Source: Tilletiopsis washingtonensis (Eukaryota; Basidiomycota; Exobasidiomycetes; Entylomatales). Taken from it: a DNA stretch of 64,000 nt. Position 1 is the first letter of the stretch. Every line of letters starts with the position of its first letter. The stretch covers positions 373,185 to 437,184 of the forward strand of contig NW_020312006.1 of NCBI RefSeq assembly GCF_003144115.1. Direction: 5' to 3'. Below the pieces are notes generated by a model, which saw only the letters and a list, made by a program, of their open reading frames with translations, made no database searches and was not told the DNA's origin. The translations under genes were made by a program, and so were the position numbers. Of this stretch, positions 19,961 through 27,688 are shown one piece after another.

Positions 19961-22900
19961 ATGAGCAGCAGCAGCAGCGTCTTCAAGAGCCTGCCGAGCT
20001 CGCACCACGGCGGCATGCCGTGGCCGGCGGCCTCGCCCTCGGCGCTCAGCCCGCCGCCGCTGAGCGACTGCACGCCGAGCAGCGAGTCGTCGTCGCGCAC
20101 GTCGCCCGCCACCGCACCGACGCCGCTCTCCTCGTCGGCGTCCGACCGTGCGCCGCCGGCGCCCGCGAGCAGCAGCAGCAAGACCGGCGGCAGGCCGCGC
20201 AGCCCGTCGCCCGCACGCGCAGAGGGCAGCAGCTCGCCGCCGCGCTCCTCTGCCGTGCCTGTGGTCCAGCCAGCGCGGCCCTCGCAGGCAGGGGCGGACG
20301 CAGGCTACACACCGTGAGTGAGAGAGGCCGCCAAGCTTTTCATCTTTGCCGCTCTGCCGAGGCGAATGGTCATATTCACGGCCTGAGTGGTGGCCCGGAT
20401 TTGCACTCGCGGCACTTTACGACGCCATGAGCTGCCAATTGCGGTGTCTTGGGTCCAGGGCCGATCAATGACTGCGCCCTGCGCCAATGTGTGCCTCGCG
20501 CTGACCCCTGTCTTCCCTCAATCAGATCCTGCAGCCGCTGCCGCGCCAAGAAGCTGCGATGCAACTGCGAGACGCCGTGCTCCAACTGCATCAGCAAGGG
20601 CCTGCAAGACGAGTGCCACAAGGACCGACGGTGAGTCTCGATCGGCCGTTCGCAGCTCGCAGCGACACTGACGCTTGCTGCACAACCCAGCATCCCGCGC
20701 GGCCGCAAGCGCTCGCGTCTGGACCAGCACCCCGCCGTCGAGCATGAGATCACGACGCTGCGGCGCAAGCTGCGCGAGCTCGAGTCGCAGAGCCGCATCG
20801 CTCCGTCGCCATCGTCGGGCTCGTCGTCATCGCATGCTGCTGCGCCTGCTTCGTACACACACTCGGCGTACGCAAGCAGCCCTGCCTCCGGCCGGTATCA
20901 AGACCTCGGCGCGGGACGGCACCACGTGCCGCGTGTTCCGTCGCCAGTGCCCGAGCGTCGTGCACCGCTGGAGCGGCGCGGCAGTGCTCTCGGCTCCATC
21001 GCCTCGGACGGAACGGGCCGCTCGCTGGATGCGGGTCCGAGCAACTGGGTCCCGCGAGACGGCTACGGCGCATCGCGCTCTGCCGCCGAGGCCCTGTCTT
21101 CGCTCAGCAGACCGTCACCGTCGCATGCCCTCTCCGGACACAGCTCCTCATCGCGCACGTCCTTGCTCGCCGACGCCACCCTGCCGCCACCGCGATCCTT
21201 CCAGCCTCTGCGCCCGCGCGACCCATCGCACATGGATGTCGCGGCCCAGTCGTTCGAGTCGCTGTCCCACTCTCGCTGGACTCGGGGCTCTGAACCACTG
21301 CGGATGAGCGGCCTGGCTGCTGATCGCCAGAGCAAGTACTGGGCCGATCCTGCTTCGATCCACGAGCGCCGTGCCCTCATCGAAGAGGTGCAAGCCGCGG
21401 CACCCGAGCTGAGCGTGCTCAACGAGCTGACGCACACCTTCCTGTGAGTTGCGCTCTCACCCGCAAGGCATCCTCTGCTGATCTGTTTTGGCGATTCAGC
21501 TACAGAGCCAATCATTTTGGCGGGCACGTCGTACATGAGCCATCCTTCCGCGAGGCGACGCAGGTGCTCATGTCCGGCAGCGTCGACGAGGTGCTGCATT
21601 CGTCCGTCTTCGCCGACCCCGCGGCACTCGCTGTGTGGCTCCTCGTGCTCGACTGCGGATACCAGTTCCACCCTTTCTCGGGCCCAACGTCGAGCACGCC
21701 TGGCTTCGCCGGAGTCCACGCCATGCGCAACAGCGGCGCGGATCCTACGCGCCACTGGCAGGACCTGGCGCGCCGAGCGTTCGCGATCGAGCGCACCTAC
21801 GCGATCCGCAGCATCAGCGGCCTGCAAGCGGCCTGTCTGTTCATCCTGCTTGGCGAGCGCGACTCGGCGTGGGTCCGCATGGTGGGCCACGCGGCGCTGA
21901 CCGGCGCCCGCGAGATGGGACTCGCACGTCTCGGCGCAGCGCCGTGCAGCGCCGACATGTCTATGCGCGAGTTTGTCCGCCTAGAGACTGCAGTGCGCAT
22001 CTGGAACTTTCTCTGCGACCGCGACTGGTGTGCAGGGCAGCGCGACGGCAGCTATGCCATCCACCGTGGACAGTTCGACACGCGGCGTCCGCTAAACCTC
22101 AACGATGCCGACCTCGAGGCTGGATTGAGTGACTCGCGCCCAGCATCCGAATGGACAGAGATGTCCTACGTGCTGGCGCATCTCGATCTCGCCGAACACG
22201 TCCGCGATGCCATCGACGTGCGCAACCTGCACTCGCGACTGCCGAACGGCGCTCCCGGCGAGTTGAGCGCCGCGGCCGTAGAGCAGCTCGACGACGGGCT
22301 GCGGCGCTACTTGCAGTTCAAGCTGCCGCGCTTCTTTGCGCTGGGCAGCAACTTCTGCCAGCCGCGCATCGCGGTGCCGCAGCGCTGGATGCTGCACCAG
22401 CAGGTCTTCAGCCAGCTTCTGTCGCTGCACCGCTCGTCGATCACTACGGCTGCGGGCCGCTCGACGTGCCTCTCTGTCGCGATGGCCACGCTCGACCTGT
22501 TCGCCGAGATCCGCACCATGTGCCCCGTCATCGAGGGCCTCTACGTCAACTCGCAGCACCTCTTCACCGCCGCGCTTATCCTCGTGCTCGACATGCTCCA
22601 CACGAGCTCGCACGAACGACGCCTGGATGCGCGCCAGAAGGTGGCCAGCGCCATCGAGCACCTCGCAAACTCGCCGCGCTCCGCAGTCATCCTCAGCGTC
22701 CTACTAGACGAGGAAGAGGCGCAGCAGCAGCGCCGCGCCAACCGTCAAGAGCCGCCGAACACGCCGCTCGACGTGGCCGCGATCTCCTGGCGCATCTCGC
22801 GCACGCTCGACTCCATCCCGTCTACGCCGCCTCACAGTGCGCGCGTGCCCGACGAATGCGCCGCGCCAGCGCTGGCTCCGTCGCTCTCTTCTCTGGGCAT

Positions 22901-23249
22901 CGCCAGGCTCCCGCCCACGCCGTCCGGCCACTCGCTGCCTCCGATGTCGCGCGACATGCCACCGCCCGACAACTTGCGTCTGCCTCTGCCGCGTCCGAGC
23001 CCGTCACGCTCGCACTACTCCAGCTCGCCGTCGCCGCGTCTGCCGCACCCTGCCGAGCGCGGCCACTTCTCGTCGCAGCCGCAGCCGTATCCGCAGGCGC
23101 ACTCGCACCCGCAGGCCCCGCCCTGCGCGCAGCAGCCGCACGTCTCGTCTCCCCCGCACACCAGCCACGCCGAGGCGTTCGGCGACGACGAGGCCGTCTG
23201 GGCCTGGATCCTCAATGCGGGCCTGCCGCTCGACGACGTGTCCTACTGA
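19961..23249 (+). CDS. Zn2Cys6 zinc-cluster transcription factor (first of a convergent pair)
   Basis: Exons 19961-20313, 20526-20630, 20691-21443 and 21500-23249 give 986 aa. Residues ~118-150 form a zinc cluster C-x2-C-x6-C-x5-C-x2-C-x8-C (SCSRCRAKKLRC, CSNC), encoded almost entirely by the 105-bp exon 2. It is followed by basic RGRKRSR and a short heptad helix (ITTLRRKLRELES) suited to dimerisation. After a Ser/Pro-rich linker comes a fungal-type regulatory domain (residues ~400-810: FREATQVLMSGSVDEVL, then ARRAFAIERTYAIRSISGLQA and VRLETAVRIWNFLCDRDW). The C-terminus is Pro/Ser/His-rich and ends with an acidic-hydrophobic patch (DDEAVWAWILNAGLP), a plausible activation motif. An in-frame ATG at 19796 would add 55 low-complexity residues; I prefer 19961 because the stretch before it looks like C-rich UTR. 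The target pathway is unknown. Confidence 0.88.
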
Positions 23250-23464: not shown

Positions 23465-23492
23465 TCAGAAGGGCTGCTCATGGTGGGAGTGG

Positions 23493-23527
<35 letters not shown>

Positions 23528-26500
23528 GCGCTGCTGCGCTTCTTGCTGCTGCTGCTCGTGCAGCTTTTGCGCAAAGAGGGCTTCGAGCGTCTCGAGCTGA
23601 CCGCCGATGTCGAAGGCGTAGCCAAGCTGCGCGATGCCCTCGAGCACCACACCGACCTCGCGCTGCTTCGCGGCCAGGTCGTATGTGCCGAGGTGGTCAA
23701 CGCTGCTGACCGAGACGTGCGGCGCAGCGTCGCCTTGCTGCTTCTGACCGCCAGAATTGTTCGGGAGCGGAGCGGTGTTGTGCTGCGGCGACCGGCCGAG
23801 GGCGCTTGGAGAGGGGCTGCCGACGGACGGCAGGGCGCAGAGGCCTGCCAGCGCAGCAGGCGAGAGGAAGGTGCGCGGGTCGACGTGGTCGCTCGGCGCG
23901 TACGGCGTCGCCATGGCATCGAGGTCGCCCCAGGCGTGCTCCTGCGCGGGCGACGGAGGCGCCGGCGGCATCGTGACGACGTAAGGAGTGCGGATCAGGA
24001 ACTGCGCCACGGCGCTGAGCTGGCCGAGGATGGTGCCGCCGGTGTGGAAGACACGCCGCGGCAGCAGCACCTCGCAGACGAGCGCGAGAGAGCGGCAGGA
24101 GAGAAGCGTGCGCTCGCGGCTGCGCTGCAAGAGCCGGCTGAGCGTTGCAGCGTGGGCCGCGTCCTCGCTCGTCTCCGCCGAGCCGGGAAAGGCGGCGTGG
24201 AGCGCTGCCAGGTGCGCCGCTTGCACCTGGAAGCGCTCGCCAAGCACGCGGTAGACCGCAAGGTCAAGCATGCACGCGCTGACCTTGATCGTGGCGATCC
24301 ACGGCAGCTGAGCGCAGTCGTGTCAGCGCTGCACGCGATAGTGGTGCACGCCAGCAACTCACGTGCTGAAAGGCAGTCAGGTTGTTCATTGTAGCACGCG
24401 CCGCCTCGATGCAGCGGTCGAAGAAGAGGAGCAGACTGTCGATGGAGCGCCAGAGGCTGGAGCACGCCTTCTCCAGGCGCTGCATCTCGGGCGTCGTCGG
24501 ACGCTTGCCGAAGCGGTCTTGCGCGGTCACCAGGGTGGTGGACATGCCAACGGGCATCGGATTGTCGATGTGGTTGCTGAGGAAGCGAGCGAGCGCACCG
24601 AGCTGCACCTTGGCAAGCACTTCGGAAGCATGTCGTCAGCGTCATCCAAGTCATGTTCAGTGCAGTGCGACTCACGGCTGAAGCTCAAGCCCATCTCGCC
24701 GCTCAGCTGCACTCCGCCTGCTGGCGAGGAGGCATTCTGCGCGCTGCGGCCCCCCTTTTGCTTGCCCGCGCCGGCCTGGATGCCGATCGCACGATCTGCC
24801 TCGTATGGCGGCCGCGTGCGTCCGAGCAGCGAGATCAAGGAGGCATATGTCCACGAGACGGTGTACACGCGCCCGTGCTGCATCTTGTTGATCAGGCCCT
24901 CGACGGCTGCTTGGTCCTGCTCGTGCACCTCTTGTGGCTGCTCAAGCCCGAGCGTGATGACATGCCGAGCGGCTGTCTCGGCAAACACTACATGGCTGTG
25001 TCAGTCCAATCCACGCTGCCCGCGAGAAGGCATGCGACTCACACGGCGTGCTGGCAGGGTCGATCCTGTCGAGGATCTGGGAGAGAATGAGCAGGCACTG
25101 AATGCCCTCGACCGAAGGCTTCCTGCACGCCCTCGAGTCTCAGCAAAGCACGCAACGACCGCAAGGCTAGCGCTCACCGCAAGAGATCGTGCTTGTGCAC
25201 CAGAGCCACTGCCTTCGCCAACATCTCGTGGCAGAAAGCGCGGCGTGCGCGGCCCCAGCGCAGGAGCTCCTTGGCTCGTCCGGCAGTGTACTGCTCAGTG
25301 ATGCGAGGACCGCCGTTGATCCAATCGCTGTTCTCCTTGCCGCGGTCTTTCCACGCATCTACGCCCACCTCTTCGGCCAGCTGCGTGGCGGTGGCAGCGA
25401 GCTCGCGCGGCACCTGGCCCGGAATGACGGGCGCCACAGGAGGCAGGTTGTTGTCCTTGCGCTTGGTGTTGATGTACTCCTGCGTGCACACGATGCGCTT
25501 GTCCTCACAGCGGCTGCAGCCGAGTCCAGCCGCACGCTCCGTGACGTCGCAGCGCACCCGCCGCAGGCTGATGGCCGCGCAGATGCCGTCAGTGATGTGC
25601 TCCCACGCCTGGCTACCAGCCGCCACTCACCGGCACGTGTCGCACGCCACTCCCTGCTTCCGCTTTGGCCGCCGGCCGCCGGCGACTGGTGCGCTGCTGG
25701 ACTGCGTGCCCAGAGAGCCGTCGGCACTGGTCGGGGCCAGCGAGTCCGCAGGCCATGCCGCGCTGGCCCATGGCGTCTCGCTGGAGCCGCTCTTGGGATC
25801 AAGAGCTACGCGAGGCAGAGTCTTGTCGTCGGTATCCTGACGCTGGCGAGAGCCACTGCCGAGCACGGCCGAGCTGGATGCCTCTTGTTCGTCCGACTCG
25901 CGGAAGCCCAGCGCCGCAGCGTGCGGGCCGAATGCGATCGGCATGTCCGTGTAGTGGGCCGCCCACGCATGCATGACGGCAATGAGCACCTGCGACGTGC
26001 CTGGCGTCGCCAGCGTGCTCTCATTGGTGGACGCCCACGTACGCATGCGCAGGCCGGGCGCAGCAAGTGGTGCCGAAGGGATGCCCTCGTCGCGGTTGCC
26101 GCCGTTGCTCATGATGCTCATGATGCGCGGGTTGCCGCGCGCAAAGTTGTAGCGCGAGGAGAAGTGCGCAAAGTCGACGATGGGCAGCTGGATGTGCGCC
26201 GTGGCGAAGAAGCAGGTGAGGAGACGGAGCGAGATGGAGCCGGCCATGACGCGCGATGCGAGACGTGCATCGCCTCGGTCGCCCGAAGCCACCTCCGGTT
26301 GTGCGAGCGACAACAGCGCCTCGCCCTCCGCATCGCCTGGCATGCTGCCATGCAGCATTCTGCTCACGCGTCAGCAATGCGGAAGCAATCTGAATTTCGA
26401 ACCGCACTGACCTTGCTTGCTCGATGCGCTTGCCTGTCCGGCTCGGGCGTGGGTACCGGCGTGATGGCGGCGCGTGGTTCTTGCCACCTGCACAACGCGG

Positions 26501-27688
26501 GCTGTCAGACGCTGGATTCGTCGTTCTGTCGCGAGTACGCTCACATGTCAGGCCCTTCTCGGTGCAGCGCGAACACTTGACGCCTTCTGCTGAGCGTCCG
26601 TCGGGGCTAGGTGGCAGGCCGCTGCTCACACGCCGCTCGAGCAAGTCGCATCTCAGGTGCTGAGATGGCAGCATGGTCAGTTTGCCGCCAATTCTGAGCA
26701 TGGACGCTCTGCTCACCTTCGCTCTGCATGCATCGCAAGTCTGCTCAGGCGAGCTCAGCCTAGGCGCCGGCATCTCAATGAAGGCAACGTCACTTACCAC
26801 GCCTTGCCGCCGCTGCACCTTGGCCCGCCCGTCTGAGCTCTGCCCATCAGCAGCTCCATCTTCGCCATCCTCCATATCATCATCGCTCCCGTCATCCTCG
26901 TCGCCGCTGGCGCTGATGCTTCTGCGGAGGCTCTCGCTCGATTCTTCCCGCTCTTTCCGCTTGCCGCCAAAGAAGGAGTGTGCGTGCGTGTGGTCCATCG
27001 AGGGCGCCACGGGCTGGGCCGGGTGCATGAAGGATGCATCGCCGCTGTGCGGCAGCAACGTGCCATCCTGTGCGGCCTGCTGCCACAGCGTATCGAAATC
27101 AGGATAGCTGCCATGCGCAAAGACGGGATGCTGCCCGTGAGCAGCGGCGGCGGCAGCGGCGGCCGCTGCAGAGTCGGCGTGGTTCGCAATGACGTTCTGC
27201 GCAGAGGCAGGCATGGCTGGCGTGTCGCAGAGCGGCGGAGGCATCGGCGGCACGCCGCTGCGTGCGCCAGAGAAGTCATCGAAGTGCGTGGCCCACTCGG
27301 CTGCAGTGCCCGGGTTGGGCGAGTCGAGACCCCAGATCCACGCAGCCGCACTGCTGCCGTCGTGTGCGCCCGGCGGCACGCTGATGGCTGCGGCGATGGC
27401 ATGTGCTGAGTGCGAGTCATTCGCAGCGTGGTCGTGGGACAGCAGAGAGGCCAGCGCATCGGTATGCGGCGAGTGCGCGCCGATGCCTGCCGGCGTGCGG
27501 CCGGAGTGCGCAGCGGCGCCGCTCGAGGGCAGCGGTGAGCGCGGCTGGTAGCTCGACGCCGCCGAGGCACCGCCGGTGCTCTCAGGCGTCGTGTGCAGCG
27601 TGGCCAGATGGGCATCGGCCTGGCTGCTGCCCGAGCCTGAGGCTGAGGCCGCGGCGGAGTGGTCGGCCATGAGGCCGTGCCGCTGCAT
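23465..27688 (-). CDS. Zinc-cluster transcription factor with two complete Zn2Cys6 clusters
   Basis: Eleven exons (27688-26798, 26740-26717, 26659-26632, 26589-26545, 26487-26412, 26359-25631, 25567-25178, 25122-25043, 24987-24676, 24619-24363, 24307-23465) give 1224 aa with all phases matching. Cluster 1 has Cys at 299, 302, 309, 320, 323 and 330; cluster 2 has Cys at 594, 597, 604, 615, 618 and 625. Both are C-x2-C-x6-C-x10-C-x2-C-x6-C, about half identical, and preceded by QGV. Cluster 1 is followed by basic RPSRTGKRIEQAR. The regulatory domain starts before cluster 2 (LRLLTCFFATAHIQLPIVDF) and resumes after it (RRAFCHEMLAKAVALVHKHD, then PSVEGIQCLLILSQIL). The N-terminal 290 residues are Ser/Ala/His-rich; the C-terminus is polyglutamine. 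Introns 1-4 (57, 57, 42, 57 bp) lack stops and are multiples of three. An additional upstream exon cannot be excluded. Targets are unknown. Confidence 0.85.
23494..23527. repeat. CTG/CAG trinucleotide run coding polyglutamine
   Basis: A near-pure CTG run on the plus strand codes for a polyglutamine tract near the C-terminus of the minus-strand transcription factor, followed by a His-rich end. A second shorter run lies just downstream (about 23547-23560). Confidence 0.85.

What the first reader, a model, noticed from the sequence alone, without database searches (positions are those of the whole stretch)
25178..26740. One transcription factor with two near-identical Zn2Cys6 clusters, the second nested in the regulatory domain
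Seen: cluster 1 (Cys 299-330) and cluster 2 (Cys 594-625) have identical spacing C2C6C10C2C6C, share 16 of 32 residues and a QGV lead-in, and both are produced only after splicing. Known: zinc-cluster factors normally carry a single cluster, with the fungal regulatory domain C-terminal and uninterrupted. Inference: internal duplication placed a second DNA-binding module in a loop of the regulatory domain, which could allow one polypeptide to contact two sites or to dimerise intramolecularly.
Basis: partly seen in the sequence, partly recalled or inferred. Interest (0 to 1): 0.75.

Follow-up and report, generated by a model that had tools for sequence, protein, structure and literature searches.

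The report
Fungal regulator with two zinc clusters
A fungal gene appears to encode one gene-regulating protein with two complete DNA-reading zinc clusters where its relatives usually have one: an unusual variant of a very common protein family.

Summary
A minus-strand gene model (27688-23465, 11 exons, 1224 aa) encodes two intact Zn2Cys6 clusters, aa 299-330 and 594-625. Each alone passes Pfam's Zn_clus cut-off (31.0 and 28.7 bits against 21). An open 729-nt exon joins them in frame and 7 of 10 introns carry a CTGAC branch site, so one polypeptide is the best reading; no cDNA was available. "Near-identical" is too strong: 16 of 32 residues match, six being zinc ligands; 7 of those 16 share a codon (9.8 expected at saturation) and no intron position is shared. 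The pair is old, by duplication or by domain capture. Cluster 1's spacing rests on an ambiguous third intron (X10, X9, X8 or X6). The "regulatory domain" was found by no profile or PDB-sequence search, so nesting is untested. Two clusters in one protein are already in print (PMC6471507, PMC7295025). Best explanation: a two-headed factor whose clusters, each behind a basic AlcR-like lead-in, read two DNA sites from one chain; the binding step is inferred. New variant of a known kind.

The parts
23465..27688 (-). Two-cluster Zn2Cys6 gene, 11 exons: 27688-26798, 26740-26717, 26659-26632, 26589-26545, 26487-26412, 26359-25631, 25567-25178, 25122-25043, 24987-24676, 24619-24363, 24307-23465; 1224 aa
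   Evidence: Manual splice model, frame kept with a single terminal stop; 7 of 10 introns have CTGAC in the last 30 nt against 1.4% of CDS 30-mers; GC3 above GC2 in 10 of 11 exons, the exception being the 24-nt exon 2
26486..26737 (-). Zinc cluster 1, aa 299-330, spread over exons 2-5
   Evidence: Pfam Zn_clus 31.0 bits alone, cut-off 21; 32.4 bits in a shorter query
26590..26631 (-). Intron 3 in the adopted model (42 nt, no CTRAY branch site); alternatives 26631-26587, 26631-26584 and 26629-26576 change the C3-C4 spacing from X10 to X9, X8 or X6
   Evidence: all four keep the frame; Pfam scores; intron-like lengths in the window
25631..26359 (-). Exon 6, 729 nt, open: joins the region after cluster 1 to the first half of cluster 2 in one frame
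   Evidence: 36 of 4000 random Markov stretches of 242 codons stay open
25486..25644 (-). Zinc cluster 2, aa 594-625, split by intron 6
   Evidence: Pfam Zn_clus 28.7 bits alone, cut-off 21
25568..25630 (-). Intron 6 (63 nt, GTGAGT donor, CTGAC branch site, CAG acceptor), inside cluster 2; retention gives an immediate stop
24676..25485 (-).
   Evidence: No relevant Pfam, NCBIfam or PDB-sequence match; resemblance to the middle homology domain is by eye only

Best explanation
This is one zinc-cluster transcription factor with two working DNA-reading heads. Shown: one frame runs through both clusters; both keep all six zinc ligands and pass the family's cut-off. Inferred: each cluster binds one DNA half-site as a monomer-type head, helped by the basic lead-in just before it (QRRQGV, KRKQGV), as described for AlcR and TerR; the link of about 260 residues lets one molecule hold two sites, not necessarily of equal sequence, since the residue at the Gal4 base-contact position differs (His in cluster 1, Arg in cluster 2). 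The second cluster was gained long ago, by duplication or by capture from a related factor, and has been kept by selection.
For: Both clusters above Pfam cut-off. Exon 6 open across the link. CTGAC branch sites in 7 of 10 introns, including intron 6 inside cluster 2 and introns 2 and 4 of cluster 1. Synonymous codons saturated while all six Cys stay in both, which suggests selection on both. The best PDB sequence match of cluster 2 is AlcR (E 0.0058), aligned over the basic lead-in; AlcR and TerR are described as monomeric, with a basic N-terminal stretch that aids binding (PMC4360782, passages; AlcR also PMC5559640, passages). Gal4 Lys18, which contacts adjacent guanines of CGG (PMC5559640), lines up with His in cluster 1 and, by position, with Arg in cluster 2.
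Against: No transcript, expression or binding data. Introns 1, 3 and 7 lack a CTRAY branch site, two of them in or next to cluster 1, and intron 3 is unresolved. No homologue was reachable. The AlcR match is weak and has a longer loop; for cluster 1 the top PDB match is an unrelated bacterial protein (E 0.033), with AlcR second (0.057) and Gal4 third (0.076). In the long query AlcR reached only E 0.15. My heptad scan found no strong coiled coil after cluster 2 (83 of 200 shuffles as good) but a borderline one after cluster 1 (10 of 200), which would argue for ordinary dimerisation; its intended positive control returned nothing, so it carries little weight.
Confidence: 0.45

Rival explanations
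1. Only one cluster (most likely cluster 1, in the usual N-terminal place) binds DNA; the other binds zinc but serves protein contacts or control.
For: Cluster 1 lies in the first third of the protein, as do the clusters of 59 of 66 Pleurotus ostreatus zinc-cluster proteins; 3 of 66 have theirs in the middle third, where cluster 2 lies (PMC7295025, section 11).
Against: Both keep family-level scores and basic lead-ins. Cluster 1, not 2, has the less Gal4-like residue at the base-contact position.
Confidence: 0.27
2. Two products from one locus: a long form with both clusters and a short form from a start inside exon 6 with cluster 2 as its only head, or simply two genes joined by my model.
For: Eight in-frame Met codons lie between the clusters.
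Against: Exon 6 is open and coding-like (GC3 0.80, GC2 0.59); a short form would begin inside this continuous exon, so a long form could still exist beside it.
Confidence: 0.13
3. Splicing switch: retaining introns 1-4 (each a multiple of three and stop-free) leaves a full-length protein with cluster 1 broken, while retaining intron 6 stops translation inside cluster 2, so splicing chooses the active head.
For: Lengths 57, 57, 42 and 57 with open translations; intron 6 retention gives a stop at once. The read-through form of cluster 1 scores 12.7 bits, below cut-off.
Against: 8 of 10 introns read without a stop (all but 6 and 7) and 57 nt is an ordinary length here, so the pattern is not striking; no isoform data.
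Confidence: 0.06
4. The second cluster is a chance motif or model artefact.
For: It exists only if intron 6 is spliced.
Against: 0 of 100,000 tail shuffles make the motif; Pfam 28.7 bits; GTGAGT, CTGAC and CAG in intron 6.
Confidence: 0.04

Closest known systems
Single-cluster Zn2Cys6 (GAL4-like) transcription factors
   Same: Cysteine motif, Pfam PF00172 score, cluster 1 in the N-terminal third
   Different: A second complete cluster about 260 residues downstream; no Fungal_trans match
AlcR (Aspergillus nidulans; PDB 1f4s and three further entries) and TerR (A. terreus)
   Same: Weak sequence match of AlcR to both clusters; basic stretch just before the cluster, described as aiding monomeric binding (PMC4360782, passages)
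   Different: AlcR has a longer C3-C4 loop; each is described with one DNA-binding cluster in the passages seen
Proteins with two C6 domains: CCG_02279 (Tolypocladium guangdongense), CCM_00582 (Cordyceps militaris); PoZCP55 (Pleurotus ostreatus)
   Same: Two zinc clusters predicted in one protein (PMC6471507, passages; PMC7295025, section 11)
   Different: CCG_02279 and CCM_00582 have C3-C4 spacings of 5 and 6 and are discussed among the DUF3468 proteins; PoZCP55 has both clusters at the C-terminus with septin domains
Dual-specificity fungal factors (for example Cmr1, C2H2 plus Zn cluster)
   Same: Two DNA-binding modules in one chain; deleting either one affects function in Cmr1 (PMC5415576, passages)
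   Different: There the two modules are of different classes; here the same class occurs twice

Membership tests
Zn2Cys6 zinc-cluster proteins | C-X2-C-X6-C-X5-16-C-X2-C-X6-8-C motif | tested here: met
   Twice, aa 299-330 and 594-625; cluster 1 also in the three other versions of intron 3
Zn2Cys6 zinc-cluster proteins | Pfam PF00172 above curated cut-off | tested here: met
   31.0 and 28.7 bits alone, 44.1 for the whole protein, cut-off 21
CeGAL (Zn2C6 plus middle homology domain, PMC10141177) | Fungal_trans / middle homology domain after the cluster | tested here: inconclusive
   No Pfam match, no NCBIfam match, no relevant PDB sequence match. The neighbouring Zn2Cys6 gene's ORFs had no match either, so there is no positive control
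Dimeric GAL4-type DNA-binding domain | Linker and coiled coil after the cluster | tested here: inconclusive
   Simple heptad scan: 10 of 200 shuffles as good after cluster 1, 83 of 200 after cluster 2; control returned nothing
Dual-specificity TFs in the sense of PMC5415576 | Two different classes of DNA-binding domain | tested here: not met
   Zn_clus is the only family that passes its cut-off in the whole protein
Two-cluster zinc proteins | Both clusters bind zinc and DNA | not testable with these tools
   Needs protein work

The most novel reading that the evidence does not exclude
A conserved class of two-headed zinc-cluster factors in which the second head sits inside the regulatory domain, and splicing decides which head is intact: retained introns 1-4 break cluster 1 without a frame shift or stop, retained intron 6 cuts the protein inside cluster 2.
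Probability: 0.06. Interest if true: 0.75.

Novelty: new variant of a known kind. Interest (0 to 1): 0.36.

Why it matters
Zinc-cluster factors are among the largest classes of fungal regulators and are mostly thought of as one reading head per chain, paired by dimerisation. A chain with two kept heads would test whether site pairing can be built into a single protein, and would add same-class pairs to the known dual-class factors.

Tried and rejected
Relatives: protein scans of viral contigs (no pattern match) and genome contigs (22 pattern matches, none confirmed); cluster-alignment scans of viral contigs (30 pattern matches, none confirmed) and genome contigs (82 pattern matches, 1 confirmed by tblastn). 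That one, a Streptomyces stretch (L001), lacks the cluster cysteines when translated and was dropped as chance. Plasmid tblastn with cluster 2: no match. By their descriptions these collections hold viruses, bacteria, archaea and plasmids, so the absence says nothing about fungi. No whole genome is held for the window.

Structure: two AlphaFold jobs on single exons without an alignment gave mean pLDDT 41.7 and 52.2. Both were too poor to use and no fold search was run.

Regulatory domain: alignment of the protein to the neighbouring gene's long ORF gave no signal in 4 of 4 segment comparisons (Z -0.5 to -1.0). A loop-removed composite found only unrelated PDB chains (3 matches up to E 10).

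Flanks of the clusters: upstream flanks, which include the QGV lead-in, are weakly alike (7 of 300 shuffles as good); downstream flanks are not (216 of 300). Similarity is thus limited to the cluster and its lead-in.

RNA: no tRNA and no Rfam match in the window.

Literature: nine searches were answered. Mentions of two clusters in one protein came from papers listed. I found none describing a second cluster inside a regulatory domain in these searches, but most of the listed papers were not opened, and of those opened I saw passages only (one section for PMC7295025). PMC10141177 (passages) speaks of 1905 domain architectures among middle-homology-domain proteins; two-cluster ones may be among them and I did not see that list. 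Passages of PMC3998117 and PMC5988728, and a find in PMC2447501 (no occurrence), gave nothing on two clusters in one protein. A search for cluster letters in text found 0 papers. The Valsa paper's remark on an Alternaria factor with two Zn2Cys6 domains (PMC10305253, passage) was not traced to its source. The CLR-1/CLR-2 passages mean two proteins, apart from one table line that reads 'Two zinc binuclear cluster' for the pair.

Full report
What is there. The window is GC-rich (64-72% GC per 4-kb block) and no genome is held for it. Its content is that of a fungus: among 20 of the 58 candidate ORFs that I scanned, pieces pass Pfam's cut-off for the 30-kDa subunit of complex I, COQ7, NMD3, MMS19, CCCH zinc fingers and a fungal protein kinase, and a CDC20/Fizzy-like WD40 piece scores high but below its cut-off.

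Gene model. Working from the raw minus strand, I placed 11 exons from 27688 to 23465 giving 1224 aa and one terminal stop. Introns are 42 to 63 nt, nine of the ten 52 to 63. Seven of 10 have CTGAC in their last 30 nt, against 1.4% of 30-mers from the coding sequence; introns 1, 3 and 7 have no CTRAY site. Intron-like stretches in the window as a whole peak at 55-59 nt (14 of 27, where random sequence gives 0.4). Exon 6, 729 nt, begins 25 residues after cluster 1 and runs open into cluster 2; 36 of 4000 random stretches of 242 codons stayed open. One polypeptide is thus the simplest reading, but it rests on a model, not on RNA.

The clusters. Pfam finds two Zn_clus stretches in the protein, and each passes alone. 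They share 16 of 32 residues plus QGV before the first Cys. In BLAST, 21 of 49 aligned residues are identical, E 2e-15 for the single comparison. As a yardstick, they score 46 to 71 against the neighbouring gene's cluster, AlcR, Gal4 and Leu3, and 129 against each other. Those four are a small set, three of them from ascomycetes. Clusters from basidiomycete factors of the same subfamily were out of reach, so the closeness of the pair cannot be called unique.

Weak point: intron 3. The X10 spacing of cluster 1 needs a 42-nt intron with a GTGTGA donor. Three other in-frame choices give X9, X8 or X6; the X6 one has the commoner GTGAGC donor and a typical 54 nt. Pfam scores 32.4 for X10 against 28.3 for X6, and the X10 form fits cluster 2 better (129 against 111). 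The choice changes the claim 'identical spacing', not the claim 'two clusters'.

Origin. Of the 16 shared residues 7 have the same codon, where the gene's own usage predicts 9.8 at saturation; introns fall at cluster positions -1.00, 7.00, 16.33 and 31.33 in cluster 1 and 4.67 in cluster 2. So the pair is old. An internal duplication and the capture of a related cluster are both open. That all six ligands survive in both after synonymous saturation suggests that both have been under selection.

Place in the protein. By eye, the stretches before (about aa 390-500) and after (about aa 690-830) do resemble the two ends of that domain, with a hydrophilic link between (aa 501-593: 85% of residues from a disorder-promoting set, 14% hydrophobic). 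No tool confirmed it: Pfam, NCBIfam and PDB sequence searches gave nothing relevant, and two single-exon structure predictions were too poor to use. The neighbouring Zn2Cys6 gene was also blank, so the tests lack a positive control. This part stays unproven.

How it may work. The best PDB match of cluster 2 is AlcR (E 0.0058), described as a monomeric binder aided by a basic stretch before the cluster, as is TerR (passages of PMC4360782; AlcR also PMC5559640). Both clusters here have such a stretch. For cluster 1 the match is weaker: an unrelated bacterial protein comes first and AlcR second. The position of Gal4 Lys18 is His in cluster 1 and Arg in cluster 2. I therefore favour two monomer-type heads that may read different half-sites. 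That is inference from sequence; that one head has another job is a serious alternative.

What is known. Two C6 domains in one protein are reported for CCG_02279 and CCM_00582 (PMC6471507, passages) and for PoZCP55 (PMC7295025, section 11). Dual-class factors are well described, and the passages I saw define them by different domain classes (PMC5415576). Hence a new variant of a known kind, not a new kind.

Noticed in passing
20530-23249, + strand: A second Zn2Cys6 gene lies tail to tail with this one: cluster CSRCRAKKLRCNCETPCSNCISKGLQDEC at 20530-20616 followed by long ORFs to 23249. The two coding regions end about 215 bases apart. No full gene model was made.
   Followed up: partly
26797-26488, - strand: Introns 1, 2 and 4 (57 nt each) and the adopted intron 3 are multiples of three and stop-free, so their retention keeps the frame but breaks cluster 1.
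   Followed up: partly
23468-23560, - strand: The C-terminus is a glutamine- and histidine-rich tail, which gives a weak Pfam TFIIA match below cut-off (15.1 bits against 36.2).
   Followed up: no
L001 5001-5090: A Streptomyces stretch matches RCDLLERP by chance; it lacks the cluster cysteines.
   Followed up: yes
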